Shown: positions 1-55,413 of the stretch, piece by piece
Layout: the number at the start of each line of letters is the position of its first letter
How positions within the stretch are numbered: the stretch's first letter is position 1
Virus record (IMG/VR): IMGVR_UViG_3300034027_000007
Location: 1-55,413 of that record
Source of the DNA: a virus
Reading direction: 5' to 3' (one strand)
DNA: 55,413 nucleotides
The notes under the pieces: generated by a model
Told to the model about the DNA's origin: nothing
The model's input: the letters and a program-made list of their open reading frames with translations, nothing else
Databases searched by the model: none
Program-made: the position numbers and the translations under genes

Positions 1-37
1 CACAAAAAAACACCCCCCCATATCGCAAGGAGGGCGC
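1..37. repeat. Left terminal inverted repeat (putative hairpin telomere)
   Basis: The first 37 bases match the reverse complement of the last 37 bases at 35 of 37 positions; the mismatches are at positions 1 and 31. The arm holds an A7 tract, a C7 tract, then ATATCGCAAGG and a G-rich part, so it also contains an internal C-tract/G-tract dyad. Joined end to end the two arms form a long, nearly perfect palindrome, the expected form of a telomere resolvase target. The alternative is a pair of identical outward-facing rho-independent terminators (GC stem plus T7) at which an assembly broke. Confidence 0.75.
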
Positions 38-3625: not shown

Positions 3626-3653
3626 GTTTGCCCTATCTTACCTTATCTTATCC

Positions 3654-6600
3654 TTAGTAACCCTCTGGTAAAACCAACCCTCGATTATGCGTAGCAGCGC
3701 ACAAACCTCGATTATATTTCTCAAGCAATGGTGCATAAAAATTGATCCATTGGTTTGCCGTGTTGTTGTTGCACTTAGCGATCTTTGTGACGAGATTTTG
3801 CCCAATATACCACCGCTCTTTACCCGATTTTTTGGCATTAGCCTGCATAAAAGGCAGCATAGCCTCGCTGATTTTACGGAAGTTTGCCGGGGGCTTAGTC
3901 AAGCAACTATCAGGATCTGACAGCGGTCTTAAATCAACCTCACTCGATTTTTTGCTGACAATTTTTTGTACTTCTTGCTTAACCAATTCTGCGGGCGGTG
4001 CATTGTCTGGGGTGCGGTGATACAGTGGGATCTCGCGACTAGAAAGAGTAATTATTCTAGTCAGCCCTTTTAACATCTCGTGTTTGGGGGTTTTGTCCCA
4101 AACGTAAATATTTGTTGATGTTTTGTCTGTAGTCCATTCACCCGCATCATTTTTCCGGTAACAGAAGCGCGGCAAGTTCAGCATCATTGTGGGCGGGTTT
4201 TCTTGCAAGAACTTTAACCGATCTTGGCAAGCTTCAAACCAATCCAACCGCAGCACCATTACCAAACCTTTTAGGGCATGATCGAAAGCGTTTTTAATTA
4301 TAGGTGCGCTTAGTTTGCCATAAGGCGGGTTGCTAAAAATCCAGTCAGCTTTAGGCATTTTGTCCCAATTTTCGGCGACTGTAGCATCTAAGTGATTTTG
4401 CGCGGGTTTTTTAGGATCAATGTCGTTAGTCCAGACTTTAAACCCGGCCGCCTCCATTATGGAAGCGATCGCACGATTGCCGGAGCAAGGCTCGCCAATT
4501 GTGCCACTAAAAGGCACGTTAGCGAGTGCCAACAGCGTCATCCAGGCCGGAGTCTCATAAAAATCATACTTGTGCCTGCCGTTCTCATCTAACTCGATCT
4601 CGATAGCTTCTGGCGCTTCCTCTGTGGCTACTTCCTCAACAAGGGCGGCGGCGGGTGCTTCCTCAGCATCCGGCTCGACTTCCTCAAGGTCGATCTCGAT
4701 TGTCTCAACCTCGGCAGAGGCGGCGGGTGTTGCCTCTATCTCAACCTCAACAGGGGCGGCGGGTGTTGCCTCTATCTCAACCTCGGCAGGGGCGGCGGGT
4801 GTTGCCTCTATCTCAACCTCAACAGGGGCGGCGGCGGGTGTTACCTCAATCGGCTCGGTCACACCCTTGACGGTAGCGAGCAGATGTTCTGGCACTTCCC
4901 AGCCCCAAAGCTTCTGATATCCTCGGACTTTGACGGGTTCGATCGGTGTGACGTTTTCCAATAGCCAAGCATAGCGGCCAGCCTCCCAGATGCCGCAGCG
5001 CCGCTCTAAATCGGTTTGCTTGGCTATGTATTCCTCGGTCATCAGTACGCAGTCTACTAAATTGGCAACTGCGATTACATAACCGCGTTCTAAATCGCTG
5101 TGATGTCTGTCTACCAGCACGAGCAGATCGGGATTGATAGCCGTCTTTTTAACCGTTGACGCGATCGCAATCGGGCCCCGGTATTCACCGCCGCCAAACT
5201 TAGCCGGCCAGCCGCGAGTCTCAATTTTTTTGTTACCGTTGCGGACTAATTCGGCCCAGGGCTGATCGAGGCTCAAAGCTGGGATTTTAAGACTGACTTG
5301 TTGGACTGTTGCAGGAGCGGGTGCAATAACAGCGGGTGCAGCATTTACCACAACAGCGGGTGCAACAACGGCGGGTGCAGCATTTACCACAACAGCGGGT
5401 GCAACAACGGCGGGTGCAGCATTTACCACAACAGCAGGTGCAATAATTGCTTTGTCCTCTAAATCATCAATTTTCGCCCCTGGTTTTCTGACTACATAAT
5501 CGGCATAGTTTAACGTAGTCCTCAACGAGCTTAAATCGCCGTCAAAATGTCCTAAGATGCGCGATTTATATAACAGTTCGTTTGTGCCTTTTGGACAGTG
5601 TAAATCGGTCACGATAGCCGCCCAAGCGCCGCGCAAACTTTTACAGCTTGGGCTTTCTTCCCCTTGCCTAACAGGCAACCAAGAGAAATGTTTTGCCACC
5701 CCGATCCGGTTAACCTGTATCCGAATAGCATCTGAAAGTTTCTTGAGATCCGGATCGTCTGCGTCTATTTGTTGCGCTATTTTTTCCACTTCTGCGACCT
5801 TATCTCGAACTATCTTGCTATCTCTAATTAGATTAAGCCGTCTCAAGAAAAAATCAGAAGTTACACCCAGCAAGATAGTAGAGGTTGCCTGTATTTCTTT
5901 GTCGCGTTTTTTAACCCGCCCTTTAATTGTGAGCATTTTTGGCTCGCCTTCAATTGGGGTAAACTCTGCGGTGTAAATGATTTCAATTGGTCGGCATCCA
6001 GTCGCTGCGACAGCCCCTGCTATCATGCGGTAAACATCATCAGAAACTAAAGCAAACTTAATAGACTCTGTGAACTGTTCCGCGTGAAGGTCTAGCGCTT
6101 GGTTATCCAGTTTTGCAATTACCTTATCATCCGCGATTTTACGATCCTTGCTCCAATCGTAATCGAGGACGCCACAGTATTTAAAATGCAAGTGACGCAA
6201 TATTGTACTGCCGTCCGATTTCTGCCACATAACCGCATTTACACCCTCTACCAGCTTAGGCTTTAGCCTGTTAATTGCTGTGTTGTAGGCTGACAAACGT
6301 TGCATTTTTGTCTTGTCTGAGATCCTTTTAGGATCGAACCTGTCCATCGATAGAAGTTTATCGCACAATGCCTTAATGTCTTCCGGCGACTTAAGACTAA
6401 CCATCAATCGAGCGTACTCTCTCGCAGTCTTAAAGGTGTATTTATCATCTAGTTTGACTGTTTCCTCAGTTCGCTGCGGTAACAGCGCTTTAACGCGCTC
6501 TTGGCTCTGCATTTGGCGGACGATCGCGTATTGCTCAGGGGTGAAAATTTCTTTAATTTCAGCCCAAAAACCATCGCCAAAAGTTGTTTGATTGATTAAA

Positions 6601-7727
6601 GCCTGAATAAAGACTTTTTTAGACTTGTCTGAGCGCTGATCTTGCAGAACTTCCGCGAGCCGATAATCGCCTGATTTAGCTCGCCAGTACACCCGATCGC
6701 CGTTTTTGTACATGGGTGTTTTGATAGAGGTGTTAGGCGTCTCAATGGCAGTGCTAGCAGCCTCAGAAGCTTCGATCGGTTGCACCGCGTCCACATCGAG
6801 CGCAGATATCATATTAGGTTTGCTGGGGCTGTAGGCAAAAATCAACGTTTCGCCCGGTTTTTGGTCTTTATCGCACACCATAACCCGAACCGTACCGGGG
6901 CGGGGCGTCCAGTTAATCTTGTCACCAGCCTTGTAAAGTTTGATTGCTTCTGCGGGTGTTGCCACTACTTCAGCGGGTGCAGCGGCCGGCGCGGTTTCTG
7001 CGGGTGTTGCCACTACCTCAGCGGGTGCAGCGGTCGGCGCGGTTTCTGCGGGTGTTGCCACTACCTCAGCGGGTGCAGCGGCCGGCGCGGTTTCTGCGGG
7101 TGCTGCCACTACCTCAGCGGGTGCAGCGGCCGGCGCGGTTTCTGCGGGTGCAGCGACCAGCGGGGCTTGTTCGGGGGCGGTGACTGTTTCGGGTGCAGCG
7201 GCCGGTGTGGCTTCTGCGGGTGTAGCCGCCACGGCTTCAAAAGGAGCGCCGTACTTGTTGGTCGGATTGCCAAAGTGTTCCTGATACCAGCTATAGAGGG
7301 TTAACTCGCCTAAAGGGGCCCAAAAAGGTTTTTTCTTTTTCTCTGCAACCAGCAATTTTCTTGATGTTTCCGAATACTGATCTCGCTCGCAGTAGACAAT
7401 CAGAACATCGCCACCGCCGGCCGGAGTATAAACCAATTTGTCATTCTCCCGATACATCGGGGCTTTATAAACCTCTTTACCTTCTGCGAGATCGGGCTGT
7501 TTCGGCAATAGCTCTCTGTACTGGCTAGGGGTCATCAAGTCGCCAATATTTGCCCAAACCTTGCGGGTTCCGGTGCTGTCGGCGAGATTAACCCAAACTT
7601 TTTTAGACTTGCTGCTGGCTTGATCTTGGTCGCACTCAACCAAAATATAATTGCCGTCGCACTGATAGTATAAGTTGTCTCCCTTTTGGTGTAGCCGTTT
7701 GGTTCCTGTTTTGGTTGTGACTAACAT
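3654..7727 (-). CDS. Telomere resolvase (protelomerase)-ASCH-DNA methyltransferase fusion (1357 aa)
   Basis: Probable telomere resolvase that cuts the palindromic telomere and rejoins the strands as hairpins. Residues 1-400 hold four degenerate 50-70-residue repeats with the pattern Y-x2-GD-x-(V/I)-Y/N-W ... DQ-x4-K-K-V, split by an Ala-Pro linker. Residues about 430-750 form the catalytic domain: TGCRPIEI (R579), GRVKKR (K606/K607), SCKSLRGAW (R699), LGH (H727) and NYADY (Y741 or Y744), matching in order the R-K-R-H-Y set of TelN/TelK-type enzymes. The H-to-Y distance (14 or 17) is longer than in TelK or ResT. Residues about 810-945 are an ASCH domain (LSLDQPWAELVRNGNKKIET). Residues about 1050-1235 are an adenine-specific methyltransferase-like domain (motif I-like EPCSGNRA, motif IV SNPPYG at 1132-1137). 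An ordinary tyrosine recombinase is the main alternative for the core; the terminal repeats favour a resolvase. Confidence 0.8.
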   Translation of the reverse strand: MLVTTKTGTKRLHQKGDNLYYQCDGNYILVECDQDQASSKSKKVWVNLADSTGTRKVWANIGDLMTPSQYRELLPKQPDLAEGKEVYKAPMYRENDKLVYTPAGGGDVLIVYCERDQYSETSRKLLVAEKKKKPFWAPLGELTLYSWYQEHFGNPTNKYGAPFEAVAATPAEATPAAAPETVTAPEQAPLVAAPAETAPAAAPAEVVAAPAETAPAAAPAEVVATPAETAPTAAPAEVVATPAETAPAAAPAEVVATPAEAIKLYKAGDKINWTPRPGTVRVMVCDKDQKPGETLIFAYSPSKPNMISALDVDAVQPIEASEAASTAIETPNTSIKTPMYKNGDRVYWRAKSGDYRLAEVLQDQRSDKSKKVFIQALINQTTFGDGFWAEIKEIFTPEQYAIVRQMQSQERVKALLPQRTEETVKLDDKYTFKTAREYARLMVSLKSPEDIKALCDKLLSMDRFDPKRISDKTKMQRLSAYNTAINRLKPKLVEGVNAVMWQKSDGSTILRHLHFKYCGVLDYDWSKDRKIADDKVIAKLDNQALDLHAEQFTESIKFALVSDDVYRMIAGAVAATGCRPIEIIYTAEFTPIEGEPKMLTIKGRVKKRDKEIQATSTILLGVTSDFFLRRLNLIRDSKIVRDKVAEVEKIAQQIDADDPDLKKLSDAIRIQVNRIGVAKHFSWLPVRQGEESPSCKSLRGAWAAIVTDLHCPKGTNELLYKSRILGHFDGDLSSLRTTLNYADYVVRKPGAKIDDLEDKAIIAPAVVVNAAPAVVAPAVVVNAAPAVVAPAVVVNAAPAVIAPAPATVQQVSLKIPALSLDQPWAELVRNGNKKIETRGWPAKFGGGEYRGPIAIASTVKKTAINPDLLVLVDRHHSDLERGYVIAVANLVDCVLMTEEYIAKQTDLERRCGIWEAGRYAWLLENVTPIEPVKVRGYQKLWGWEVPEHLLATVKGVTEPIEVTPAAAPVEVEIEATPAAPAEVEIEATPAAPVEVEIEATPAASAEVETIEIDLEEVEPDAEEAPAAALVEEVATEEAPEAIEIELDENGRHKYDFYETPAWMTLLALANVPFSGTIGEPCSGNRAIASIMEAAGFKVWTNDIDPKKPAQNHLDATVAENWDKMPKADWIFSNPPYGKLSAPIIKNAFDHALKGLVMVLRLDWFEACQDRLKFLQENPPTMMLNLPRFCYRKNDAGEWTTDKTSTNIYVWDKTPKHEMLKGLTRIITLSSREIPLYHRTPDNAPPAELVKQEVQKIVSKKSSEVDLRPLSDPDSCLTKPPANFRKISEAMLPFMQANAKKSGKERWYIGQNLVTKIAKCNNNTANQWINFYAPLLEKYNRGLCAATHNRGLVLPEGY
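4698..4841 (-). repeat. 36-bp in-frame repeats (linker 3 of the resolvase fusion)
   Basis: Four copies of a 12-residue unit (TPAAPAEVEIEA-like) form an acidic Ala-Pro linker between the ASCH and methyltransferase domains. The DNA copies are nearly identical, which suggests recent slippage or expansion. Confidence 0.8.
5325..5441 (-). repeat. 39-bp in-frame repeats (linker 2 of the resolvase fusion)
   Basis: Three copies of a 13-residue unit (AVVVNAAPAVVAP) separate the catalytic domain from the ASCH domain. The unit differs in length and sequence from the other two linkers of the same protein. Confidence 0.8.
6954..7154 (-). repeat. 48-bp in-frame repeats (linker 1 of the resolvase fusion)
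   Basis: About four copies of a 16-residue unit (APAEVVATPAETAPAA) lie between the second and third N-terminal repeat domains. The opposite strand is open through this region only because of the repeat composition. Confidence 0.8.
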
Positions 7728-7746: not shown

Positions 7747-7771
7747 CCTTATCTTATTCTACAAGATAAGG
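7747..7771. promoter_or_regulatory. Inverted GATAAGG operator upstream of the resolvase gene
   Basis: CCTTATCTT (7747-7755) and AAGATAAGG (7763-7771) form a perfect 9-bp inverted repeat with a 7-nt spacer; a third direct copy, GGTAAGATAA, overlaps at 7770-7779. The site lies 20-50 nt before the resolvase ATG, so it is well placed for control of that gene. The half-site is the same word that occurs in the promoter family of this replicon. Confidence 0.65.
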
Positions 7772-7814
7772 TAAGATAATCCCGAACTTTTGGAAAATAT
7801 TTTTAAAAGATTTG

Positions 7815-10233: not shown

Positions 10234-11028
10234 TTAAACTGTTCCCAACTGACCCAAACAAGCTCGCAATTCTGCAAGCACTGCTTGTATGTAGCGGTTA
10301 TTTTTAGTAGTTCGCCACCGACTGTCTATCACCTTGTAAGTGTTGCTCGCGTTGCGGTTTGCCGTGACGCGCAACGGAAGATCGACGCCGGGCCTCACAC
10401 CCGCTTGCCTGTCGCTTGGATCGCCCTCAATTTCACTGATGGCACAAACCAGCTTAACAATCGGGTGATCGGTCAGAGGGTCAATAATGCTGAATTGCCG
10501 ATAGCTTTGACCGCCATCGATAGAGACAGCCCCCGACATCAACGGCGCGGCCCAGATAATGCTTACTGGCGGTTGCGGTGCTTCAGTCGCGGTGCTGTTT
10601 GGGAGCGAATCGAACAGCGCCATAGAGTTAGCAGCCAAAGCACCGATCTTTGCTCGGATCACCGCCTCGAATTGGTCATTGAGTTCGCTCAAACGATCGC
10701 TGAACTCGCGGGCGCTGTCTTGGTCATTAGACATAATGGCAGCTTGCTCGGCATCGGCTACCCGATCGATCTCTGCCAAAATTTCCGCCTCGATGTCGGT
10801 GTCTGCCGTGTCCGGGACATTTCCGGGACGTGCATCGGACACGGTAGCAACTGCCGGGACGGCTTCAACTGCTGGGACTGCAACAGCGACAGCGGCCAAA
10901 ATGCCAGAAATCCAGCTAGTTTTGAATCGAGCATCCCCTGCGGGTTCTGCGTTGGTTTGGATTGCAATCTGTTTGAGATCCTTAATAGGTAGTTGGATCA
11001 GTGCTTCTGCGGTATAATTGATAGTCAT
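10234..11028 (-). CDS. Hypothetical protein with SAP-like N-terminus (264 aa)
   Basis: Residues about 10-42 (LIQLPIKDLKQIAIQTN ... RFKTSWISGIL) look like a SAP-type helix-extension-helix DNA-binding motif. An Ala-Val-Pro linker follows (PAVEAVPAV), then an acidic coiled segment, then a C-terminal domain with no known match. I place the start at ATG 11028 rather than the TTG at 11100: the TTG lies inside the promoter leader, and the conserved AAACCACCTTAA element lies between the two. An 11-bp repeat cluster (10808-10840) lies inside the gene. It is divergent from the oxygenase gene at 11283. Confidence 0.75.
   Translation of the reverse strand: MTINYTAEALIQLPIKDLKQIAIQTNAEPAGDARFKTSWISGILAAVAVAVPAVEAVPAVATVSDARPGNVPDTADTDIEAEILAEIDRVADAEQAAIMSNDQDSAREFSDRLSELNDQFEAVIRAKIGALAANSMALFDSLPNSTATEAPQPPVSIIWAAPLMSGAVSIDGGQSYRQFSIIDPLTDHPIVKLVCAISEIEGDPSDRQAGVRPGVDLPLRVTANRNASNTYKVIDSRWRTTKNNRYIQAVLAELRACLGQLGTV
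10808..10840. repeat. 11-bp repeat cluster 1 (coding)
   Basis: Three consecutive 11-bp units: GTGTCCGGGAC, ATTTCCGGGAC and GTGCATCGGAC. They lie inside the gene 10234-11028. The same unit recurs at 13059, 14921, 15048, 16328 and 19181. Confidence 0.7.
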
Positions 11029-11042
11029 GACATTTGCGAGCT

Positions 11043-11130
11043 TTAAGGTGGTTTGCTGTGTTAGGCGGGTGTTGAGCTGTGGGACGGTCAACACCCGCAA
11101 TTATTTACACTATACCACCCTATCTTAAGC
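11043..11130 (-). promoter_or_regulatory. Conserved promoter and leader element (minus)
   Basis: On the minus strand TTAAGATAGGGTGG is followed by TATAGTGTA (-10 at 11109-11114). GCAAACCACCTTAA occurs at 11043-11056, shortly before the ATG at 11028. This is one half of a divergent pair with the block at 11231-11275. Confidence 0.7.
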
Positions 11131-11230
11131 AATCGGGATAAGCTTAAAATAGGGTTTATTAATATTTAATGAGTTTTTCGCTTTGCTGATAACATAAGCT
11201 TATTAGAGCGCTTGTGGTTTTTGCCGGGAT

Positions 11231-11275
11231 ATGTAAGATAAGCTGGGATAGTGTACAGCTAACGCAAACCACCTT
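11231..11275 (+). promoter_or_regulatory. Conserved promoter and leader element (plus)
   Basis: TGTAAGATAAGCTGG is followed by GATAGTGTA (-10-like GATAGT at 11247-11252), then GCAAACCACCTTAAAG, then the ATG at 11283. It is a divergent copy of the element at 11043-11130. Confidence 0.65.
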
Positions 11276-11282
11276 AAAGACT

Positions 11283-11831
11283 ATGGAAACGATCGCCACG
11301 CTAGACAAAACGCAAGCAGATCAACTGCTCGACTGGTGCAGCCGTCAGGAATTGGGCCCCGAACACTATGCCGGAAAACTTACCGCCCGCCGTCAGAAAT
11401 GGTGGGGGCTTGAGGCTGAGATCCTCGGCTCTAGCGGCCGTTGGCTCGTTCACCAGCGGGACGCGATTCAATCTGATGAGTATTTAGCCAGCTTAAAGGC
11501 TAAGTACCGCCCTGACGCTAATTCTGTTTTGCTCTACCGCTATGAGATAGGGGCCGGCATTGGTGAGCACAGCGACAAGGATTGCTTTGAGCCGATGGTT
11601 GTTTTGGTCAATCTTATTGACGAACTGCCGGATCTGTTTGGCGGCCGCCCGCCTTGTCGCTTCCGGTACGGCTCCAAACCGGGCAAGGCCGGCACGTTTG
11701 AATCCGTACCGCGTTACCTTGACCTACAGCACGGTCAAATAGTGCAATTTAACAGCCGAGTCCTTCACGGCTTACCCAAGCTTAAAACGGCTCGCTATAG
11801 CCTCCAATTTCGCCGAGTAGTTACCCCATAA
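11283..11831 (+). CDS. AlkB-like 2-oxoglutarate-Fe(II) oxygenase (182 aa)
   Basis: Predicted non-haem iron dioxygenase; AlkB-family members remove alkyl groups from DNA or RNA bases. The iron ligands are visible: H96 and D98 in IGEHSDKD and H162 in LHGLP, followed by R171 and R177 (TARYSLQFRR), which would bind 2-oxoglutarate. YRYEIGAGIGEHSD matches the usual strand before HxD. Length suits a minimal AlkB-like domain. I choose ATG 11283 because the conserved leader element ends just before it; the upstream GTG-type start at 11214 would run through the promoter. It heads a short plus-strand operon with the next two genes. Confidence 0.75.
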   Translation: METIATLDKTQADQLLDWCSRQELGPEHYAGKLTARRQKWWGLEAEILGSSGRWLVHQRDAIQSDEYLASLKAKYRPDANSVLLYRYEIGAGIGEHSDKDCFEPMVVLVNLIDELPDLFGGRPPCRFRYGSKPGKAGTFESVPRYLDLQHGQIVQFNSRVLHGLPKLKTARYSLQFRRVVTP

Positions 11832-11845
11832 TCGCAGGAGTTCCA

Positions 11846-12220
11846 ATGGCTAAGAATACTTATGTTGCAATCGAGCAAGCGGCTATTTTGTTAAAGCAAT
11901 TATGCTCGCAAGTCAATCAAGCCGCTTTAGGTTTCACAACTGAACACGAGAATGTAATCATCAGTTTTGAGGACGTTTTGCCCACTTCTGGCACTCGGAC
12001 ATTCTGTAAGGCTGTCATAGTGTCCGAGGCTGAGTTAAACGAACTCAGAGAAGCACAGAACGAGCTAGCGGCAATCAAGGCCGGAAATATGGCTGAGGCA
12101 ATGGCAAGCGGTAAGCGCTTGAGGTCGGCTACCATACCCGAGCTATATCAAGAGCTAGGTTTTAAACTCGGAATGGTGCAGCGGCCACCGCTCAACTCCG
12201 AGGGCAACCCAAATGATTAG
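11846..12220 (+). CDS. Hypothetical protein (124 aa)
   Basis: No family recognised. The protein is largely helical with a predicted coiled region (ELNELREAQNELAAIKAGNMAEAM) and a C-terminal segment IPELYQELGFKLGM. CAGGAG lies 8 nt before the ATG. Its 3' end overlaps the antitoxin-like gene by 8 nt, so the two are probably translationally coupled. Confidence 0.8.
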   Translation: MAKNTYVAIEQAAILLKQLCSQVNQAALGFTTEHENVIISFEDVLPTSGTRTFCKAVIVSEAELNELREAQNELAAIKAGNMAEAMASGKRLRSATIPELYQELGFKLGMVQRPPLNSEGNPND

Positions 12221-12443
12221 CGAGCGGCCCGAGTTTGTGTTTACTTTAGAAGAAGCACAAAGCAATCTAGCAGCGCTCTGCGAGCAAGCTAAGAACAATC
12301 AGAACATTGTGATCCGCCTCCCTGACGGCACTCAATTCGCTCTAGTTACGGTTGAGGATTTAAACGCTCTAATAGACCAAGCGCATCAACTGATGCAAGT
12401 TTGCCACAGAGAGATTGAGAACCTCGGCTCAATCCTCAAATAA
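12213..12443 (+). CDS. Phd/YefM-like antitoxin (76 aa)
   Basis: The pattern FTLEEAQSNLAALCEQAK, then IVIRLPDGTQFALVTVEDLNAL, matches the Phd/YefM antitoxin N-terminal dimerisation and DNA-binding domain (T-L-x2-A-x3-L-x2-L, then a beta hairpin and S/D-x-L). No Doc, RelE or other toxin gene is adjacent: a terminator follows, and then a minus-strand gene. It may act as an orphan transcription regulator, or neutralise a host toxin in trans. The family call is by pattern only. Confidence 0.65.
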   Translation: MISERPEFVFTLEEAQSNLAALCEQAKNNQNIVIRLPDGTQFALVTVEDLNALIDQAHQLMQVCHREIENLGSILK

Positions 12444-12457
12444 CGCTAACAGGGAAT

Positions 12458-12488
12458 AAAAAACCGCTCTACAGTTGGGCGGTTTTTT
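12458..12488. terminator. Bidirectional terminator
   Basis: AAAAAACCGC and GCGGTTTTTT form a 10-bp stem with an 11-nt loop between convergent genes. T tracts are present on both strands. It ends the oxygenase-antitoxin operon and the minus-strand ATPase operon. Confidence 0.9.
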
Positions 12489-12503
12489 ACTGTCTTTACC
12501 AGC

Positions 12504-13508
12504 TTAAAAGGGGATTGGGTCTATATCGTTTAAATGATCGTTTAATCGTTTCTGGGGTGCTACAACTTGACCGTCTATCATGGGTTGCCATCTTTGCTCT
12601 GGAAACAAATTGAACTGTTTGCCCTCGTTATTCCTGATAATTCCGTTTGATGACACATAAGTAGTTGTGAGGGTGTAGCCGTCCTTAAGTTTAATTACTG
12701 TCGGCTCTTTCTTGAACGGCAAACCTGTATATTTTCGCCAGTCCTGCTTGGGTTTTATCCAAATAGGGAATCGGATAGACAAGCCACCGTCACCGATGAA
12801 AATGTGCAATTGCACAAGGTTTGCGCCTGTCCAGTGTACGCACGTCATTGTATCCACATTAATCATCCGCTCGCCCCAAAAATGATTAATGTTTGCCTTA
12901 ATTTCATCCCAATTAATCAAGCGAGAGTCACAGTACAAAACCCGACTTTTTATCACTGGATCTCTTAATTCCTTCCGCAACAAATAGAGCGCTCTGACCA
13001 CACTTACTAAATTTATCGAATAATCGATCACCGTTTCTCGCTTGCCGCGCTTCCACAAGTCCCGGACATTTCCCGGACATGACGGGGTAATCCCAAAGCC
13101 GAGATTGCTTTGTGCTAACTGTTCTAAATTATACCCACGTCGGCAGATTCCACTTAGAGGCTCGCCCGCCGCCCTCCGAACCTCAACCATCAAATCGTAG
13201 GTTGTGGTTAGGTTTATCCCGTAGGCGGCGCAAAGTTTGTCCCCAAACTCTAAGCCGTTAAAGCTGACAATCTCATCGGCCTCGCGGATCAGTGACTCAA
13301 CCCGCAAAAAACCGTCATCTTTCGTGAAGGCATAAAACTGCCGATCCTCTGGGAACCAGTCGGCATGAACCGCAAACACCGCTAAACCTAAATAACCATA
13401 GTCTGTCCAGTCCGCCTTATCTCTGATCCGGTTTTCCGGCGTGACGGCGTACACTAAGGTCTTTTTTGCGGGCTGCTTGCCAAACAACAGGGATTTAATA
13501 AAGCTCAT
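12504..13508 (-). CDS. RNase H-fold (DEDD-type) exonuclease-like protein (334 aa)
   Basis: The N-terminal part follows the RNase_H_2/DEDD layout: YGYLGLAVFAV (first strand), then a length of spacer, then LIREADEIVSFNGLEFGDKL (the 'a-D-x-I-V-x-F-N-x3-F-D' motif), then TYDLMVEVRRAAGEPL (conserved Asp in Y-D-L) and YNLEQLAQSNLGF. This suggests a 3'-5' exonuclease-like fold; the first acidic residue is not obvious, so activity is uncertain. The C-terminal third is unknown. The last residues, DIDPIPF, resemble the C-terminal tail of bacterial SSB. An 11-bp repeat cluster lies at 13059-13083. It is the last gene of the minus-strand ATPase operon. Confidence 0.65.
   Translation of the reverse strand: MSFIKSLLFGKQPAKKTLVYAVTPENRIRDKADWTDYGYLGLAVFAVHADWFPEDRQFYAFTKDDGFLRVESLIREADEIVSFNGLEFGDKLCAAYGINLTTTYDLMVEVRRAAGEPLSGICRRGYNLEQLAQSNLGFGITPSCPGNVRDLWKRGKRETVIDYSINLVSVVRALYLLRKELRDPVIKSRVLYCDSRLINWDEIKANINHFWGERMINVDTMTCVHWTGANLVQLHIFIGDGGLSIRFPIWIKPKQDWRKYTGLPFKKEPTVIKLKDGYTLTTTYVSSNGIIRNNEGKQFNLFPEQRWQPMIDGQVVAPQKRLNDHLNDIDPIPF
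13059..13083. repeat. 11-bp repeat cluster 2 (coding)
   Basis: On the minus strand two units, ATGTCCGGGAA and ATGTCCGGGAC, stand in tandem. They encode part of the exonuclease-like protein around CPGNVRD. Confidence 0.65.
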
Positions 13509-13708
13509 AAGTACCTCAAACGTTGATTTTGCGTGACGGTGTTTTGGGAGTTAGCGGCCAAAGTGCGATCGGTGCTTCCGGCGCATACAGGACAAGACTT
13601 GTAATTGATGAGCCGTTCTGTTTTTCCGGCAGATTTTTTTAGTGTTTGCCGAGGCCGGGGTTTTTTTACCGATGTTTGCCGGAGTTCCGGTAAAAACGCT
13701 GATCGCAC
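13505..13708 (-). CDS. Small ORF with CPVC motif, uncertain (67 aa)
   Basis: A GTG-started frame ends with a TGA that overlaps the ATG of the downstream exonuclease-like gene by four bases (ATGA), an arrangement typical of coupled genes. It is basic, with SCPVCAGS near residue 40, but only one CxxC pair. A second frame (13551-13739) is also open here. I see no strong ribosome binding site, so it may not be expressed. Confidence 0.3.
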   Translation of the reverse strand: MRSAFLPELRQTSVKKPRPRQTLKKSAGKTERLINYKSCPVCAGSTDRTLAANSQNTVTQNQRLRYL

Positions 13709-13845
13709 GTCGGCAAGTGAGTAGAGGGGCTTTCAGCAATTTTAAGACAAGGTAGCAGCGATCGCCGTTGCCGATGCTCCGGCAGATACTGCCAGAGAAA
13801 AAAGACTAAAAACGGCTGTAAGCCTTACTGGTTATATGTCGGTGG
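13709..13845. other. Spacer with short CCGGCA-type repeats
   Basis: No supported gene. Together with 13600-13708 the stretch is rich in TGCCGG/CCGGCA words (for example at 13681, 13789, 13853 and 13876), which could form several weak hairpins. Nothing else recognised. Confidence 0.4.
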
Positions 13846-16296
13846 CTACTTGCCGGAGGTTGCCGGAGTCTCGCCGGCCTTTGGTAAACGGAATGTTTTC
13901 CTACACTGGCGGTTGCCGCACTCATAGCGCGGCGTCCCGTCTTTGTAAGGCTTTAGGGGGTGTATTGTCGTGTACAAGCAATTCGGACAAGCCGCGAATT
14001 CATCCAAACCGCGATCGGCGTTTTCGCTTTCATTCTGGCGGTGCGGTGAGGTAACGCGGGCCCCTTCGGGAAACCGCAGCCCGTCCAGAGAAAAATCGCT
14101 GTAGGCAGGCTGCTGCACAAAGAAAGGCTCGAACGATGGCGCAACAACCAGGGCGATTCTATAAGCGTTTGGCGAGACTTTCTTAGAGTCGCCTATTTTT
14201 GGGCGAGCTGTAAGCCCTTCCTGCTCGTTTAAGAGGTCGCAGAGGCTGTTTAGTTGGTTTAGCTTATCCAGTAACTCAGCGCGGTTTGCAGCCGCTTTAT
14301 TGCTGTTTATATACGCTTTAGCTTGCTCTGAGGTCAGCACCATTGTGCAGTTGAGAAAGTCCTCTTTCATTAACCGGGTCGCGTTGCCCGTGTTTTTCTC
14401 GCCCTCTTCCGTCTTTTTCGTTCTTGCACCGCCGCTGAGGCCTGACACGTTCAACCCTTGCCCTGCCGATACAAACCCCATGTTTGTATGGTCAGACAAC
14501 TGATACATATCTTTGAAGAAGCGGCCGATCTCTTCGTAGTCCCGAGCGGTGGCATTATCTTCATCTAGGGCCATAACAAGATAATCTCTCTTGCTGGCTT
14601 CCTCTAAATTGTTCCTACGCCACTTAAACTCGCGGTGAAAGGCTTCTAACGCTTGCACGATGGTTTGTTCGGCGTTCATTCCCGGCTGTACAATGCCGGG
14701 GATTTTAAACCAGTCCTTAACCGATCCGGGGATAGGGTTAACGAGCCAAAGCACCCCTCTGTTTAGCTTGGCTAGCTCTACCGCGATCCGCTCTAGCAGC
14801 GGTGACTTACCGCCCGTGCTGCCTGCACAAACCCTCACTCGGTTGGTGAACTTAGTCCGCACCACTTCCCCAAACTGATCTGCCGGAAAACACCCCAATT
14901 CGATAAATTTATCGCGGTGTATGTCCGGCTCGTGTCTGGTTTGCGGCTCAAAGTCTAACCCTTTCTGTACTTTCGTTTTAGGCTTCTTGACCCGACTTAA
15001 ATCGGTTGTCAATAAGCCCCCAATAGTTGATAAATCGCTGTTGTCTCGTGTCCGGTTCATGTCCGCGTCATGTCCGGGACGTGTCTGGTTTACGGAAAAA
15101 ATCTCGACACTCACTAAAAAATCCTGCGGGTGCAACTTAAATTTTAATTCTCTGGTAGATAAACCCATTAACCCCCGCTGGTTTGTCACCTTGTTAAATT
15201 CTTCTGATGACAATTTAGTTTGGTCAGGGTTGCGATCGATCTTGAATTTAAGGCAATAGCCGCCTACTATTAAGTCAGTGCTGTGTGCATCAAATGTTAC
15301 ACCGTATTTATGGAAATGATCGATTATGGTATTGCCGATCTGATCTGGGTCAGTCAAACCCGAGAAACGGCGCGGCGCTTCATATTCGGCAATTTTCTGT
15401 TTTAAAATTGCGTTTTCTCCTGCTAGTTGGAGAAATTCAGAATCGCGGGCGCTCATCTCCTGTTTGTAAGCATTTTCTATTTGTGGCAGGGTGTTTTTTT
15501 CAATTGACTCCATTACATTTTGTTTGTCTCCTAAATCTTCCTGCAATATTGCAATAGCTTGTTTGAGCTTGGCAATCTCAGCGAGCTTGCTCTCAATAGC
15601 TTGACCTACTGCTTGCTGAGTGTAAGGGGCGATTTTGTTTCTAATTTCTAATTCCAACTTATAGTTAAAGTTAGTTTGTAGCTTGTCTAGCTCTAGGACT
15701 GTTTGTGCTAGCTCGCTGTCTAGATCGTCTTTTGCCGCTTCTAACTCTAGTACCTGTTCCTCTAAAGTCTTGTTGACTTCCTCCAATTCGGCAAGCTCGG
15801 CTAAGGTAGACTCTAAAGCCTGATTTTTTTCTGATAACTTTCTTTTTAGTGTCCCGATCAGTTCTTGCACTGGGGGCGAATCTAAAATTTTGGGGTTTTT
15901 TCCTGACTCCCAGTATCTAAGCCCTAATTCTAATTCCTCGCAGCGTCCCCTTAAATCGCTGACAGTCCGCTCTAATTCATCCCGATAGTGATTCCTCTCA
16001 GCGGTCATCTTCTCAAGCTCAGAGCGCAATTCTAGCTCTAAGATTGTTAATTTGCTCTTGGCATTCTCTAGCTCTAAAAGCAGTTCCTCTTGTTTCTCTT
16101 CCAACAGCCCTATAGCGTCCCGAGCGCCAAAGTTACAAGCGCTTGCACCCGCCAAAAATCCCGAAGTAAGGGCAAGACCGCTAGCAGCCAGCGGCGCTAA
16201 TCCCAAGCCGCCCAAAACAGCGACTACACCCAACCCGCCAAAGCTGACCGTGCCAAGCAGAGAAAACATTTTTGCTATCTCGTTTTTGGTACTCAT
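13846..16296 (-). CDS. Membrane-anchored coiled-coil P-loop ATPase with zinc ribbon (816 aa)
   Basis: Residues about 10-55 are hydrophobic and Gly-rich (two possible membrane segments). Residues about 60-305 are a long coiled coil rich in Leu, Glu and Lys. A linker follows, then a P-loop: CAGSTGGKSP (Walker A, K497) and YLVMALDED (Walker B, D578). Residues 770-798 are a four-Cys zinc ribbon (CPNC ... CGNRQC). I choose ATG 16296 because AGGAG lies 9-10 nt upstream; a start 11 codons upstream lacks one. The layout suggests a membrane-tethered motor acting on DNA, for example in segregation or transfer, but I know no exact family and the role is inferred. Three 11-bp repeat clusters lie inside or just upstream of it. 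Confidence 0.75.
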   Translation of the reverse strand: MSTKNEIAKMFSLLGTVSFGGLGVVAVLGGLGLAPLAASGLALTSGFLAGASACNFGARDAIGLLEEKQEELLLELENAKSKLTILELELRSELEKMTAERNHYRDELERTVSDLRGRCEELELGLRYWESGKNPKILDSPPVQELIGTLKRKLSEKNQALESTLAELAELEEVNKTLEEQVLELEAAKDDLDSELAQTVLELDKLQTNFNYKLELEIRNKIAPYTQQAVGQAIESKLAEIAKLKQAIAILQEDLGDKQNVMESIEKNTLPQIENAYKQEMSARDSEFLQLAGENAILKQKIAEYEAPRRFSGLTDPDQIGNTIIDHFHKYGVTFDAHSTDLIVGGYCLKFKIDRNPDQTKLSSEEFNKVTNQRGLMGLSTRELKFKLHPQDFLVSVEIFSVNQTRPGHDADMNRTRDNSDLSTIGGLLTTDLSRVKKPKTKVQKGLDFEPQTRHEPDIHRDKFIELGCFPADQFGEVVRTKFTNRVRVCAGSTGGKSPLLERIAVELAKLNRGVLWLVNPIPGSVKDWFKIPGIVQPGMNAEQTIVQALEAFHREFKWRRNNLEEASKRDYLVMALDEDNATARDYEEIGRFFKDMYQLSDHTNMGFVSAGQGLNVSGLSGGARTKKTEEGEKNTGNATRLMKEDFLNCTMVLTSEQAKAYINSNKAAANRAELLDKLNQLNSLCDLLNEQEGLTARPKIGDSKKVSPNAYRIALVVAPSFEPFFVQQPAYSDFSLDGLRFPEGARVTSPHRQNESENADRGLDEFAACPNCLYTTIHPLKPYKDGTPRYECGNRQCRKTFRLPKAGETPATSGK
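14921..14942. repeat. 11-bp repeat cluster 3 (coding)
   Basis: Two units, ATGTCCGGCTC and GTGTCTGGTTT, lie inside the ATPase gene. Confidence 0.55.
15048..15091. repeat. 11-bp repeat cluster 4 (coding)
   Basis: Four consecutive 11-bp units: GTGTCCGGTTC, ATGTCCGCGTC, ATGTCCGGGAC and GTGTCTGGTTT. They lie inside the ATPase gene although 11 bp is not a codon multiple, which argues for selection at the DNA level. Confidence 0.75.
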
Positions 16297-16327
16297 AAAA
16301 AATAACTCCTGTGTTTGTGTCTCGATC

Positions 16328-16349
16328 ATGTCCGGGTCATGTCCGGGAC
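16328..16349. repeat. 11-bp repeat cluster 5 (intergenic)
   Basis: ATGTCCGGGTC and ATGTCCGGGAC stand in tandem, followed by ATGAC. They lie 32 nt upstream of the ATPase start. Confidence 0.7.
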
Positions 16350-16417
16350 ATGACTTTAAGTAAAAAAAAGGGGCGATGCACCCCTTGAATATTTAGCAGT
16401 TAGATGCCTGTGTTTGG

Positions 16418-17155
16418 TTAAACGCTGACCGGGTTAGAGCCAATTAGTGCAGCGAGTGATTGCTGCCTGGTTAAATACTTTTGCTCTTGCTCTTGCAGCG
16501 TCAGTTTCAAATCATCAATTTGGACACTTAGGATTGATTTGTTAGTCTCGTTGACTGAGGTTAAATGCGTTTCTTTCCCTATCTCAGCATCGAGTTTTAA
16601 TGCACCTTGTCGCGTTTTTGATTGCTGAATTCCGAGGTTGTTTAACTCAGTATTGATGCCTTCCCGAGCTGTTGCGTACCTGACTTGCTCTTGCCCAATC
16701 TTGGCTGATTTAATGGCTGCTTTGAATGTAGACAGCATCACGTCTAAACCGTCGCTGATGTTGTCTATATAGTTTTTGTGTTCGCCATACTGGATCTTGT
16801 TTAACTCTCGCTCGTTGTTGGTGACGCGACCGTAGCCGGCCGCCTCAAATGATGCGGGATTAGATAAATCTGTTACGTTGGTCAAGGGCGTGAAATCAGG
16901 GAGGTTAGCCGACAGATTGAGCGGTAATCTACTGAAATCTAAAGCGCTTGTGCTGGCTGTCTGTTTTGGAGCTAGATTAAAATCAGGCTCGTGTACTAGC
17001 TGTGAGGTTGCAACATAAGCCTCGGCTTGTTGCTCGTCATCAGGTAACAAGTTGTTAACAGCTTTTACAACTGTTTGTTTAACTGCTTGCTTGGCTCGTT
17101 GAGTGCGGCTAGTCTTTTTTTGACTGCTGGCTGGTTTGGTTCTGGTAGCTACCAT
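16418..17155 (-). CDS. Hypothetical protein with basic N-terminus and coiled coil (245 aa)
   Basis: No family recognised. The first 35 residues are strongly basic (SQKKTSRTQRAKQAVKQT), so nucleic acid binding is possible. The C-terminal half is a long helix or coiled coil (about residues 115-240). It is preceded by TAGGAGATATCGAGC, where the stop of the 45-aa ORF overlaps the AGGAG site, so the two genes are probably coupled. It precedes the ATPase gene in the same operon. Confidence 0.8.
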   Translation of the reverse strand: MVATRTKPASSQKKTSRTQRAKQAVKQTVVKAVNNLLPDDEQQAEAYVATSQLVHEPDFNLAPKQTASTSALDFSRLPLNLSANLPDFTPLTNVTDLSNPASFEAAGYGRVTNNERELNKIQYGEHKNYIDNISDGLDVMLSTFKAAIKSAKIGQEQVRYATAREGINTELNNLGIQQSKTRQGALKLDAEIGKETHLTSVNETNKSILSVQIDDLKLTLQEQEQKYLTRQQSLAALIGSNPVSV

Positions 17156-17167
17156 GCTCGATATCTC

Positions 17168-17305
17168 CTAAATGACGTGAGTGTTTAAAATTGCCCAAAA
17201 CGAGATAAAACCCTGCCTGAGTTTTTGCAAGTCTTGATAAAGATTTGCTTGATTAAATTGGTTGATTTCTGTTAAAAAATGCTTAGCCGTCGATGGTGTG
17301 AACAT
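17168..17305 (-). CDS. Small ORF (45 aa)
   Basis: ATG 17305 is preceded by AGGGAGAG at a spacing of about 7 nt. The product (MFTPSTAKHFLTEI ... QGFISFWAILNTHVI) is helical with a C-terminal hydrophobic end. Its stop codon TAG forms part of the AGGAG site of the next gene. It overlaps the upstream 66-codon frame by 23 nt. Confidence 0.6.
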   Translation of the reverse strand: MFTPSTAKHFLTEINQFNQANLYQDLQKLRQGFISFWAILNTHVI

Positions 17306-17483
17306 ACGCGATCTCTCCCTGCCAAAAGGCGTTACAATATTGGTTGTACAGTGTCTCGATTTTTGGGTCGCGAGTGCTTCTATACTGCTGCCACAGTGCC
17401 TCGCTAATTGCTTTTAAAGTGTCTTGATACCGTTGAAAGGTATCAAGACTAGCGCCGCTGAGATGGTGCGGTATTGGAGCAAT
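17283..17483 (-). CDS. Small ORF without a standard start codon (66 codons)
   Basis: This frame fills the gap between the 180-aa gene and the 45-aa ORF. It encodes a protein-like sequence (PHHLSGASLDTFQRYQDTLK ... NAFWQGEIAYVHTIDG). No ATG, GTG or TTG occurs in frame near its 5' end. An ATT stands 2 nt after the stop of the upstream gene, and the frame is -1 relative to that gene. Possible explanations are an ATT start through coupling, a frameshift, or a sequencing error. An 11-bp perfect inverted repeat lies inside it. Confidence 0.45.
   Translation of the reverse strand: MAPIPHHLSGASLDTFQRYQDTLKAISEALWQQYRSTRDPKIETLYNQYCNAFWQGEIAYVHTIDG
17421..17449. other. Perfect 11-bp inverted repeat in a coding frame
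   Basis: GTCTTGATACC (17421-17431) and GGTATCAAGAC (17439-17449) with a 7-nt loop. No T tract follows on either strand. It could be an operator or an mRNA hairpin acting on coupling of the small downstream ORFs. Confidence 0.6.
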
Positions 17484-17485
17484 AC

Positions 17486-18028
17486 TTAATAAATCGCTGG
17501 CAACGCTGCGATCGATGCTTTGACTTTCGTTACCCTCCCGGCAAACTTCCCCCGCTTGGCTTGATGGTTGGTTGCAGATTGCACGATCGCTTTAGTCCGC
17601 TCGTTGATATCTGCGATTGTTTGTTCGGAACGTTCCATCTCAGACTCGAAGTAAGCGCCGATCGTCTCTTCCTTACCGCCCTTGTAGGCGTTTACAATCT
17701 CTACACCTGCGATTCGGCCTTGTTGGCGGCTGACAGCCAACTGCACCTCAAGCAAAGCATTCATAACGCCGTATTCAAAACCATCATCTGATAGAATCAC
17801 GTCGGAGGATTCAGCAACCGTTAGTTGGCCGCCCGTTAATTGCTGGCTGGTGCTGGGTGTTTCGGTGCTGTCGTACTGGGCGGCGTGGTACTTGATGCGG
17901 TCTAAAAACTCCTGCGGCACTTCCGAGTTGACCGTCCATTTTTGATCGGGGTAAGCTCCTGTGATTTGTCCTAAAAGGGCTTTAGGGGCTTGTTTGCAAT
18001 TTTCTGCAACTGTTGCGATAGTAGGCAT
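17486..18028 (-). CDS. Hypothetical protein (180 aa)
   Basis: No family recognised. It is soluble and mixed alpha-beta by eye, with a Ser/Thr/Gln-rich centre and a basic C-terminus (NHQAKRGKFAGRVTKVKAS). CCAGGAAC about 10 nt before the ATG is a good ribosome binding site. It belongs to the minus-strand operon from 19143 to 12504. Confidence 0.8.
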   Translation of the reverse strand: MPTIATVAENCKQAPKALLGQITGAYPDQKWTVNSEVPQEFLDRIKYHAAQYDSTETPSTSQQLTGGQLTVAESSDVILSDDGFEYGVMNALLEVQLAVSRQQGRIAGVEIVNAYKGGKEETIGAYFESEMERSEQTIADINERTKAIVQSATNHQAKRGKFAGRVTKVKASIAALPAIY

Positions 18029-18044
18029 AATTTTGGGTTCCTGG

Positions 18045-18365
18045 TTAATTGTATTGTTGATGTTGGTAGTGCATTTTTAATTCCATTTGTACGCGCAATT
18101 TATTGCGATGAAGTACAAATAAACTACGGACTCGCTGTAACTCGAATAGATGCCAATCAGTTAGTCTTTCGCCGTTTAATCCACCCGTGAAAGGGTTTTT
18201 AAAAGTACCGAAGTTTTCCTCGGCAAAAATAACTAACATTTCTAAATACCTTGTAACAGTTCGCCCGCTAACTGGTGGCGATAATTGCTCGCCCGCTTCA
18301 TCGCGGGTATAAACCTGCGGATTGTCAACAGAAACCGAACCCGCAGCAGGGGCGATATTTGGCAT
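18045..18365 (-). CDS. Helix-turn-helix-like protein (106 aa)
   Basis: The middle, YTRDEAGEQLSPPVSGRTVTRYLEML, has the form of a MerR or excisionase-type winged helix-turn-helix with an insertion, followed by GERLTDWHLFELQRVRSLF, which would be the second helix pair. This suggests a small DNA-binding protein. CAGGAG lies 9 nt before the ATG. Confidence 0.55.
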   Translation of the reverse strand: MPNIAPAAGSVSVDNPQVYTRDEAGEQLSPPVSGRTVTRYLEMLVIFAEENFGTFKNPFTGGLNGERLTDWHLFELQRVRSLFVLHRNKLRVQMELKMHYQHQQYN

Positions 18366-18397
18366 ACTTTATTAACTCCTGGTAGATAGCTTGTGTA

Positions 18398-18457
18398 TTG
18401 CCTGCCTGCACAGGCAAACCCTAAAAGGGATTAATGCAGGACTAGCCGAGGGGCTAG
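18398..18457. repeat. Three-hairpin intergenic module, copy 1
   Basis: Three short stem-loops follow each other: TTGCCTG/CAGGCAA, CCCTAAAAGGG, and CTAGCC-GAGG-GGCTAG. The last two are repeated almost exactly at 18789-18827. The module lies between two minus-strand genes of one operon and could process or stabilise the mRNA. Confidence 0.65.
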
Positions 18458-18468
18458 CCGTCAATTGT

Positions 18469-18747
18469 TTACATGAAATTGAAGCCTAGGGCTTGATTCA
18501 AAGCGCTGTTAAATTCGGCGTTGTTTGGCGGGTTGCGCTTGTCTTGCTCAACTTGTTTTAAGCAGTTAGTGTATTCTTTCAAATCAGCAATGATTTTCCC
18601 GAGTGTGCAATCTGTCAAGTCTTTAAAACCCTCTGTTCCTTCTAAGGCTACCAAATCATCAGTTTGCACCATCTCCATGCCTGCCGCGTTACCAGTTAAA
18701 ACAGTGACAATCATTTCTAAATCATCTGCACTAATCGATTTAGCCAT
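18469..18747 (-). CDS. Hypothetical protein (92 aa)
   Basis: No family recognised. It is acidic, helical and soluble (SADDLEMIVTVLTGNAAGME ... NSALNQALGFNFM). ATG 18747 is chosen over 18771 because AGGAG lies 8 nt upstream. It is flanked on both sides by the three-hairpin modules. Confidence 0.75.
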   Translation of the reverse strand: MAKSISADDLEMIVTVLTGNAAGMEMVQTDDLVALEGTEGFKDLTDCTLGKIIADLKEYTNCLKQVEQDKRNPPNNAEFNSALNQALGFNFM

Positions 18748-18772
18748 AAATACTCCTAAAGTTGTTGTCAAT

Positions 18773-18827
18773 ATTGCCTTTCGGCAATCCCTAAAAGGGA
18801 TTAATTAATGCTAGCCGAGGGGCTAGC
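18773..18827. repeat. Three-hairpin intergenic module, copy 2
   Basis: ATTGCC-TTTC-GGCAAT, CCCTAAAAGGG and GCTAGCC-GAGG-GGCTAGC in series, matching the order of the copy at 18398-18457. Confidence 0.65.
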
Positions 18828-18837
18828 ACAAGCTTAA

Positions 18838-19143
18838 TTAATCGTTGTCGTCTTCTTCCTCTTCTTCCTCTTCTTCCTCTTCTTCCTCTTCTTCCTCTTC
18901 TTCTTCCTCCTGTTCCTCTTCCTCTTGGTCGCCGTCTTCGTAGTCATCCGGGTTGTAGGCGTCGCCGTCTTCGTCTTCCTCTTCGTCTTCCCCCACGTTA
19001 TCTTGATTATCTTCCTCGGCTTCCTCGGCTTCCTCGGTTGGCTCGGTTGGGTCAACTAATTCGCTGCCTTCCGTTGGCTCGCCTACACTAAACACCGCTG
19101 GGGGAATGGGGCCGGGTTGCCCGATATTGTTGATAAAGCTCAT
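18838..19143 (-). CDS. Highly acidic protein with poly-Glu tail (101 aa)
   Basis: About 60 of the 101 residues, nearly all in the C-terminal two thirds, are Glu or Asp; residues about 73-101 are almost pure Glu/Asp. The tail is encoded by a TCTTCC/TCTTCT hexamer-like repeat at 18850-18910, prone to slippage. AGGAG lies 5 nt before the ATG. It is the first gene of the minus-strand operon. Such proteins can mimic DNA or bind basic partners; the role here is unknown. Confidence 0.75.
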   Translation of the reverse strand: MSFINNIGQPGPIPPAVFSVGEPTEGSELVDPTEPTEEAEEAEEDNQDNVGEDEEEDEDGDAYNPDDYEDGDQEEEEQEEEEEEEEEEEEEEEEEEEDDND

Positions 19144-19169
19144 AAGGCTCCTGTAAATTATTTTTGCTT

Positions 19170-19210
19170 GTGTCTGGGAAATGTCCGGGTCATGTCCGGG
19201 TCATGTCCGA
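19170..19210. repeat. 11-bp repeat cluster 6 (iteron-like, intergenic)
   Basis: A degenerate unit GTGTCTGGGAA is followed by ATGTCCGGGTC twice and a partial ATGTCCGA, in exact 11-bp phase. The cluster lies between the start of the minus-strand ATPase operon and the ribbon-helix-helix-like gene, the expected place for an iteron or centromere site. Confidence 0.75.
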
Positions 19211-19222
19211 ATAAAATTAACT

Positions 19223-19240
19223 TACCTGAGATTTCAGGTA
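19223..19240. promoter_or_regulatory. Inverted repeat, possible operator
   Basis: TACCTGA-GATT-TCAGGTA is a perfect 7-bp dyad between the divergent operons. It may control either direction. Confidence 0.5.
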
Positions 19241-55376: not shown

Positions 55377-55413
55377 GCGCCCCCCTTGCGATATGGGGGG
55401 GTGTTTTTTTGTA
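55377..55413. repeat. Right terminal inverted repeat (putative hairpin telomere)
   Basis: Reverse complement of 1-37 with 35 of 37 matches. It reads CGCCCCCC-TTGCGATAT-GGGGGGG then TGTTTTTTTGTA, so on its own it also resembles a rho-independent terminator of the endolysin-like gene. Confidence 0.75.

What the first reader, a model, noticed from the sequence alone, without database searches (positions are those of the whole stretch)
10808..19210. Six clusters of an 11-bp tandem repeat, inside and outside genes
Units of RTGTCCGGGWC stand in exact 11-bp phase at 10808, 13059, 14921, 15048, 16328 and 19181, including inside three genes where 11 bp does not fit codons. Eleven-base direct repeats are bound by RHH partition proteins such as ParR, and N15 has dispersed centromere sites. 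The RHH-like gene at 19348 and the membrane ATPase at 13846 would be candidate partners.
Basis: partly seen in the sequence, partly recalled or inferred. Interest (0 to 1): 0.82.

Follow-up and report, generated by a model that had tools for sequence, protein, structure and literature searches.

The report
Phased 11-bp site arrays, linear phage-plasmid
A phage that lives in its (probably cyanobacterial) host as a linear plasmid carries six small arrays of an 11-letter DNA word repeated exactly once per helix turn, inside genes and in front of genes, which look like docking sites for a DNA-binding protein, although what binds there and why is not yet shown.

Summary
Seventeen units of RTGTCCGGGWC stand in exact 11-bp phase in six arrays (10808-10829, 13059-13080 on the minus strand, 14921-14942, 15048-15091, 16317-16349, 19170-19213). 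Ten lag-11 pairs were found against 0.005 expected. Unit edges are sharp, RTGTCYGG is nearly invariant and the last three bases vary. Four arrays lie inside three genes, in all three codon phases; the two inside the membrane-ATPase gene fall in two insertions absent from nine homologues. Two arrays sit 20-26 bp before start codons. The record is a near-complete 55-kb linear plasmid prophage (telomere resolvase, inverted-repeat ends). Related cyanobacterial linear plasmids share telomere resolvase, ATPase plus partner, CyRepA and terminase but not the arrays; no sequenced cyanobacterial genome scanned holds the exact dimer.

Best reading: DNA-level binding sites of a replicon-encoded protein, used as operators of the leftward operon and the ATPase gene and possibly as dispersed maintenance sites. 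An FtsK-like motor with TRS-like loading sites, origin iterons and functionless repeats remain open rivals.

The parts
10808..10829 (+). array C1, 2 units, inside gene 10234-11028 (-)
   Evidence: GTGTCCGGGAC ATTTCCGGGAC
13059..13080 (-). array C2, 2 units, inside gene 12504-13508 (-)
   Evidence: ATGTCCGGGAA ATGTCCGGGAC
14921..14942 (+). array C3, 2 units, inside ATPase gene, in an insertion unique to this copy (aa ~452-459)
   Evidence: ATGTCCGGCTC GTGTCTGGTTT
15048..15091 (+). array C4, 4 units, inside ATPase gene, in a second unique insertion (aa ~403-417)
   Evidence: GTGTCCGGTTC ATGTCCGCGTC ATGTCCGGGAC GTGTCTGGTTT
16317..16349 (+). array C5, 3 units, between a terminator and the ATPase start codon (16296)
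   Evidence: GTGTCTCGATC ATGTCCGGGTC ATGTCCGGGAC
19170..19213 (+). array C6, 4 units, leader of the leftward operon (start codon 19143), divergent from gene 19348
   Evidence: GTGTCTGGGAA ATGTCCGGGTC ATGTCCGGGTC ATGTCCGAATA
13846..16296 (-). 816-aa ATPase: N-terminal hydrophobic part, coiled coil, FtsK/HerA-like P-loop domain, C-terminal zinc ribbon
   Evidence: homologues in nine cyanobacterial linear plasmids; FtsK motor E 0.012 with the family profile; P-loop GSTGGKS
16418..17155 (-). 245-aa partner of the ATPase, conserved as its neighbour
   Evidence: iterative search and alignment with nine plasmid proteins
19348..19623 (+). 91-aa small protein in the divergent regulator slot; RHH-like by eye only
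   Evidence: no family match; relatives have RHH or XRE proteins in this slot
3654..7727 (-). 1357-aa telomere-resolvase fusion protein
   Evidence: PF16684 E 8e-17
1..37 (+). left telomere half (terminal inverted repeat)
   Evidence: 35 of 37 identical to the inverted right end
55377..55413 (-). right telomere half (terminal inverted repeat)
46530..50150 (+). CyRepA1-family replication protein
   Evidence: NF042913 E 2.4e-87
19223..19240 (.). perfect palindrome TACCTGA-N4-TCAGGTA in the leftward promoter region, a possible separate operator
   Evidence: single perfect copy in the window

Best explanation
The six arrays are DNA-level binding sites (an 8-bp core RTGTCYGG plus a 3-bp spacer, one helical turn per unit) for a protein encoded by the linear phage-plasmid, most likely the small protein from 19348. 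Bound side by side on one face of the helix, at least two units per array, the protein controls the two transcription units whose leaders carry arrays C5 and C6 (the ATPase gene, and the leftward operon divergent from 19348). The four intragenic arrays are further docking sites of the same protein in the same module, kept in tolerant linker segments, and may serve plasmid maintenance (a dispersed centromere or loading site for the adjacent ATPase). Shown: arrays, phase, core conservation, placement, replicon type, gene neighbourhood. Inferred: that a protein binds, which protein, and any maintenance role.
For: Exact 11-bp phase, far beyond chance. Variation is concentrated outside positions 2-5 (p about 0.001) while position 10 is always A/T. 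Units occur in all codon phases inside genes and also outside genes, so selection on protein does not explain them. The ATPase-gene arrays lie in insertions absent from nine homologues. C5 and C6 lie at matching leader positions, 20 and 26 bp from start codons. All arrays are confined to the 10.8-19.2 kb module. The divergent slot is occupied by an RHH or XRE DNA-binding protein in the relatives. Precedent: R1 ParR needs at least two 11-bp repeats, and a Clostridium ParR binds two 8-bp repeats 3 bp apart (PMC9426499).
Against: No binding data. The 91-aa protein is not recognisable as RHH by any profile and its model is poor. None of the examined relatives has the arrays, so there is no cross-species conservation. 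Array C6 lies beside an unrelated perfect palindrome that could be the operator of that promoter. The test of positional variation is weakened because the units were chosen by their match to the pattern.
Confidence: 0.45

Rival explanations
1. Loading or orientation sites for the FtsK-like membrane ATPase, working like the 8-bp TRS repeats of Streptomyces TraB: the ATPase binds the arrays and pumps or positions the linear plasmid.
For: Arrays C3-C5 lie in or directly before the ATPase gene and C2 lies ~0.8 kb past its end; the ATPase family profile matches the FtsK motor best among motor proteins (E 0.012) and ends in a zinc ribbon that could read DNA. The T-type unit contains GACCCGGA, the TRS of pSVH1 (PMC5133688), three times.
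Against: The FtsK match is weak; no winged-helix gamma domain was found. GACCCGGA is present in only 3 of 17 units and three hits are not rare (4 of 100 shuffles). Homologous ATPases live on plasmids without such arrays.
Confidence: 0.15
2. Dispersed centromere of a ParMRC-like or ParA-ParG-like partition system with the 91-aa protein as centromere binder.
For: Low-copy linear plasmid lifestyle; 11-bp direct repeats as in R1 parC; relatives have ParG or RHH genes in this slot and two carry an actin-like gene next to the ATPase.
Against: No ParA was found and no ParM-like gene was recognised in the window; the ATPase pair also occurs on plasmids that have their own ParA or ParAB, so it need not be a partition motor; the RHH assignment is unproven.
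Confidence: 0.15
3. Neutral or selfish short tandem repeats that spread within the module and are tolerated in linkers.
For: Near-identical units in different arrays; C3 and C4 share flanking sequence beyond the units, as after duplication; no relative has them; insertion into unconserved linkers.
Against: Variation is not even along the unit; both intergenic arrays sit in gene leaders; none elsewhere in 55 kb; intragenic lengths of 22 and 44 bp are not multiples of three, so simple spread would have broken frames.
Confidence: 0.2
4. Replication-origin iterons of the linear plasmid.
For: Two related phage contigs (L016, L017) carry tandem ATGTCCCGGAC units among ~11-bp repeats inside a replication-initiator-like gene linker, a precedent for origin repeats inside genes.
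Against: CyRepA is 27 kb away; arrays spread over 8.4 kb; the GC-skew minimum near 20 kb disappears at fourfold-degenerate sites.
Confidence: 0.07

Closest known systems
ParR/parC of plasmid R1 (type II partition)
   Same: 11-bp direct repeats in strict phase, at least two needed for binding, next to small DNA-binding protein and regulated promoter
   Different: one compact locus next to parM; here six dispersed arrays, four inside genes, no ParM-like gene recognised, RHH identity of the candidate unproven
N15 SopB centromeres IR1-IR4
   Same: telomere-phage linear plasmid with several dispersed sites
   Different: N15 sites are single inverted repeats for a ParB-type protein with SopA; here direct-repeat arrays, no ParA found
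Streptomyces TraB/clt TRS repeats
   Same: clusters of a short 8-bp word near the gene of an FtsK-like membrane motor; partial identity GACCCGGA
   Different: ATPase only weakly FtsK-like, no gamma domain found, word present in 3 of 17 units
PhoB/OmpR-type direct-repeat operators (from general knowledge, not looked up)
   Same: direct repeats in 11-bp phase before regulated genes
   Different: no response regulator found in the window; four arrays intragenic

Membership tests
Telomere phage (N15 type) | telomere resolvase gene | tested here: met
   PF16684 E 8e-17
Telomere phage (N15 type) | linear replicon with inverted-repeat (hairpin) ends | tested here: met
   35/37 bp terminal inverted repeat; covalent closure not testable
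Telomere phage (N15 type) | phage structural and packaging genes | tested here: met
   terminase PF03237, tail sheath similarity
ParMRC partition system | direct repeats in phase as centromere | tested here: inconclusive
   repeats present; binding and stability untested
ParMRC partition system | RHH adaptor protein | tested here: inconclusive
   91-aa protein fits by eye only; no profile match
ParMRC partition system | actin-like ParM | tested here: inconclusive
   none recognised among the window proteins scanned against Pfam; most structural-region proteins and small ORFs were not scanned; present in relatives L009 and L012
ParABS / ParAFG | Walker-type ParA | tested here: not met
   in frames over 90 codons the Walker-motif scan found only the 13846 ATPase and one short spurious frame
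FtsK/TraB translocase with cognate sites | FtsK-type motor domain | tested here: inconclusive
   profile E 0.012 to FtsK
FtsK/TraB translocase with cognate sites | sequence-specific C-terminal domain binding short repeats | not testable with these tools
   zinc ribbon present instead; binding not testable
Replication iterons | repeats at the origin, bound by the initiator | tested here: inconclusive
   no compositional sign of an origin; binding untested

The most novel reading that the evidence does not exclude
A new kind of maintenance system for linear phage-plasmids of cyanobacteria: a membrane-anchored FtsK-like ATPase with a conserved partner protein replaces ParA or ParM and is tied to the plasmid by dispersed, partly intragenic 11-bp arrays read by a small adaptor protein.
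Probability: 0.15. Interest if true: 0.8.

Novelty: new variant of a known kind. Interest (0 to 1): 0.5.

Why it matters
If the arrays are a dispersed docking system, they would show how a telomere phage of cyanobacteria is inherited without a ParA or a recognised ParM, would give a function to a conserved ATPase plus partner pair found on cyanobacterial linear plasmids, and would be a clear case of protein-coding genes carrying embedded, codon-independent control sites. It is directly testable with two proteins and a 44-bp oligonucleotide.

Tried and rejected
Protein-level repeat: rejected, units lie in all codon phases and outside genes. RNA element: leaders and intragenic copies do not share a fold and Rfam has no match. 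Replication origin inferred from the GC-skew minimum at 20.0 kb: rejected, at fourfold-degenerate sites the minus-strand genes on both sides have the same skew (0.105 and 0.108). Same array in relatives: absent at the corresponding promoters and by lag-11 scan; one relative (L027) has two 22-bp copies in its divergent region only. Close relatives of this phage in IMG/VR by ATPase, terminase, telomere core and promoter motif: none; in GenBank phages and plasmids the array region has no match. Exact 22-bp dimer in 84,980 genomes: 7 hits, all in GC-rich actinobacteria. Structure models of the 91-aa protein (pLDDT 62, no fold match) and of the ATPase C-terminus (pLDDT 34) were not informative. The actual host genome and metagenomes could not be searched.

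Full report
OBSERVATION. The pattern RTGTCCGGGWC occurs 15 times with at most one mismatch against 1.57 expected. Allowing two mismatches, ten pairs lie exactly 11 bp apart, against a mean of 0.005 in 200 simulated sequences, and none lie at the neighbouring lags 7-10 or 12-14. Read in phase there are 17 units in six arrays: C1 10808-10829, C2 13059-13080 (minus strand), C3 14921-14942, C4 15048-15091, C5 16317-16349, C6 19170-19213. The neighbouring phased 11-mers outside the arrays are at background in nearly all cases, so the edges are sharp. The core RTGTCYGG occurs 15 times in the window, 13 of them in the arrays.

ANATOMY OF THE UNIT. Deviations from the consensus by position are 0,0,1,0,0,4,1,2,6,0,5; positions 2-5 are almost free of change (p about 0.001 under even placement), positions 9 and 11 are loose and position 10 is always A or T. 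This is the picture of an 8-bp contact plus a spacer that completes one helical turn. The test is weakened by the fact that units were picked by their likeness to the pattern. The A-type unit GTCCGGGAC is a 9-bp near-palindrome; the T-type unit is not.

WHERE THE ARRAYS ARE. Four arrays lie inside three minus-strand genes. Units occupy all three codon phases, so the repeat is not a protein repeat. In an alignment with nine homologues from cyanobacterial plasmids, C3 and C4 fall in two insertions, in the linker before the ATPase domain, that only the window protein has. C5 lies between a terminator and the ATPase start codon, C6 in the leader of the leftward operon, 20 and 26 bp from the start codons; a perfect palindrome (19223-19240) lies just upstream of C6. 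All arrays are within 10.8-19.2 kb of the 55.4-kb record.

THE REPLICON. The window is a whole virus record. Its two ends are inverted repeats, 35 of 37 bases alike, and it encodes a telomere resolvase, a terminase, a tail sheath similar to known phage sheaths and a CyRepA1 replication protein. It is therefore a near-complete linear plasmid prophage. The host is probably a cyanobacterium: the relatives of its replication, telomere and ATPase proteins are mostly or all cyanobacterial plasmids and the HIP1 word GCGATCGC occurs 17 times. Seven small cyanobacterial plasmids share its terminase.

THE NEIGHBOURING GENES. The 816-aa ATPase and the 245-aa protein before it are a conserved pair in cyanobacterial linear plasmids. 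The ATPase family matches the FtsK motor only weakly (E 0.012); it has an N-terminal hydrophobic part, a coiled coil and a C-terminal zinc ribbon. The gene divergent from the leftward operon is, in relatives, an RHH protein (RHH_5 above cut-off in two, ParG above cut-off in one, weaker in others) or an XRE-type HTH protein. The window's 91-aa protein holds this slot and looks like an RHH by eye, but no profile confirms it. A motif scan of long frames found no ParA, and no actin-like gene was recognised among the proteins scanned, although two relatives have one beside the ATPase.

BREADTH. The exact dimer was found in three viral contigs and seven actinobacterial genomes, none related. One contig (L018) has ten exact tandem units GTGTCCGGGTC plus an eleventh with one mismatch behind its terminase gene; two (L016, L017) have the unit inside a replication-gene linker. 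Relatives of the window replicon do not carry the array.

INTERPRETATION. The arrays are most simply binding sites for a protein of this replicon. Their leader positions argue for operators; their intragenic positions, in tolerated insertions, argue for an additional role that needs sites at several places. R1 ParR needs at least two 11-bp repeats, and a Clostridium ParR reads two 8-bp repeats 3 bp apart (PMC9426499), so the layout works like a ParR site; membership in a ParMRC system is not established because no ParM was recognised and the adaptor is unproven. TraB of pSVH1 reads GACCCGGA (PMC5133688), which occurs in three of the 17 units; this is a lead only. Neutral spread is not excluded.

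VERDICT. I rate the finding as a new variant of a known kind (phased direct-repeat binding sites), unusual in being dispersed and partly intragenic in a linear phage-plasmid.

Noticed in passing
1-37 and 55377-55413: The record ends in a 37-bp terminal inverted repeat (35 identical), so it is a near-complete linear plasmid prophage with telomere halves at both ends.
   Followed up: yes
1536, 2276, 3632-3642, 7748-7772, 11119, 26185, 37925, 38350, 42536, 52911, 53673: A second dispersed motif, TAAGATARGG, often in tandem at 10 bp or as TTAAGATAGGGTGGTATARTGTA directly before genes; probably a phage-specific promoter class. Not found at the 11-bp arrays.
   Followed up: partly
L010, L011, L027-L031 (AP018305, AP018306, AP018215, NC_019679, AP018286, CP026691, NC_014535): Small (13-27 kb) cyanobacterial plasmids carry a terminase 27-34% identical to this phage's, most with telomere resolvase, CyRepA-like or the ATPase pair; annotation shows no structural genes. 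They look like satellites that use such phages for packaging.
   Followed up: partly
13846-17155: A two-gene module (membrane coiled-coil FtsK-like ATPase with zinc ribbon, plus ~220-aa partner) conserved on cyanobacterial linear plasmids; no convincing Pfam family matched.
   Followed up: partly
L018:1420-1540: An unrelated phage contig has ten exact tandem copies of the same 11-bp unit GTGTCCGGGTC plus an eleventh with one mismatch, directly after its terminase gene.
   Followed up: no
L016:870-930, L017:10240-10300: Tandem ~11-bp repeats with core ATGTCCC inside the linker of a replication-initiator-like gene, possibly origin iterons.
   Followed up: no
3654-7727: The telomere resolvase is a 1357-aa protein with a weak ASCH match and a C-terminal region (aa ~1050-1270) similar to separate hypothetical proteins on Nostoc plasmids, an unusual fusion.
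   Followed up: no
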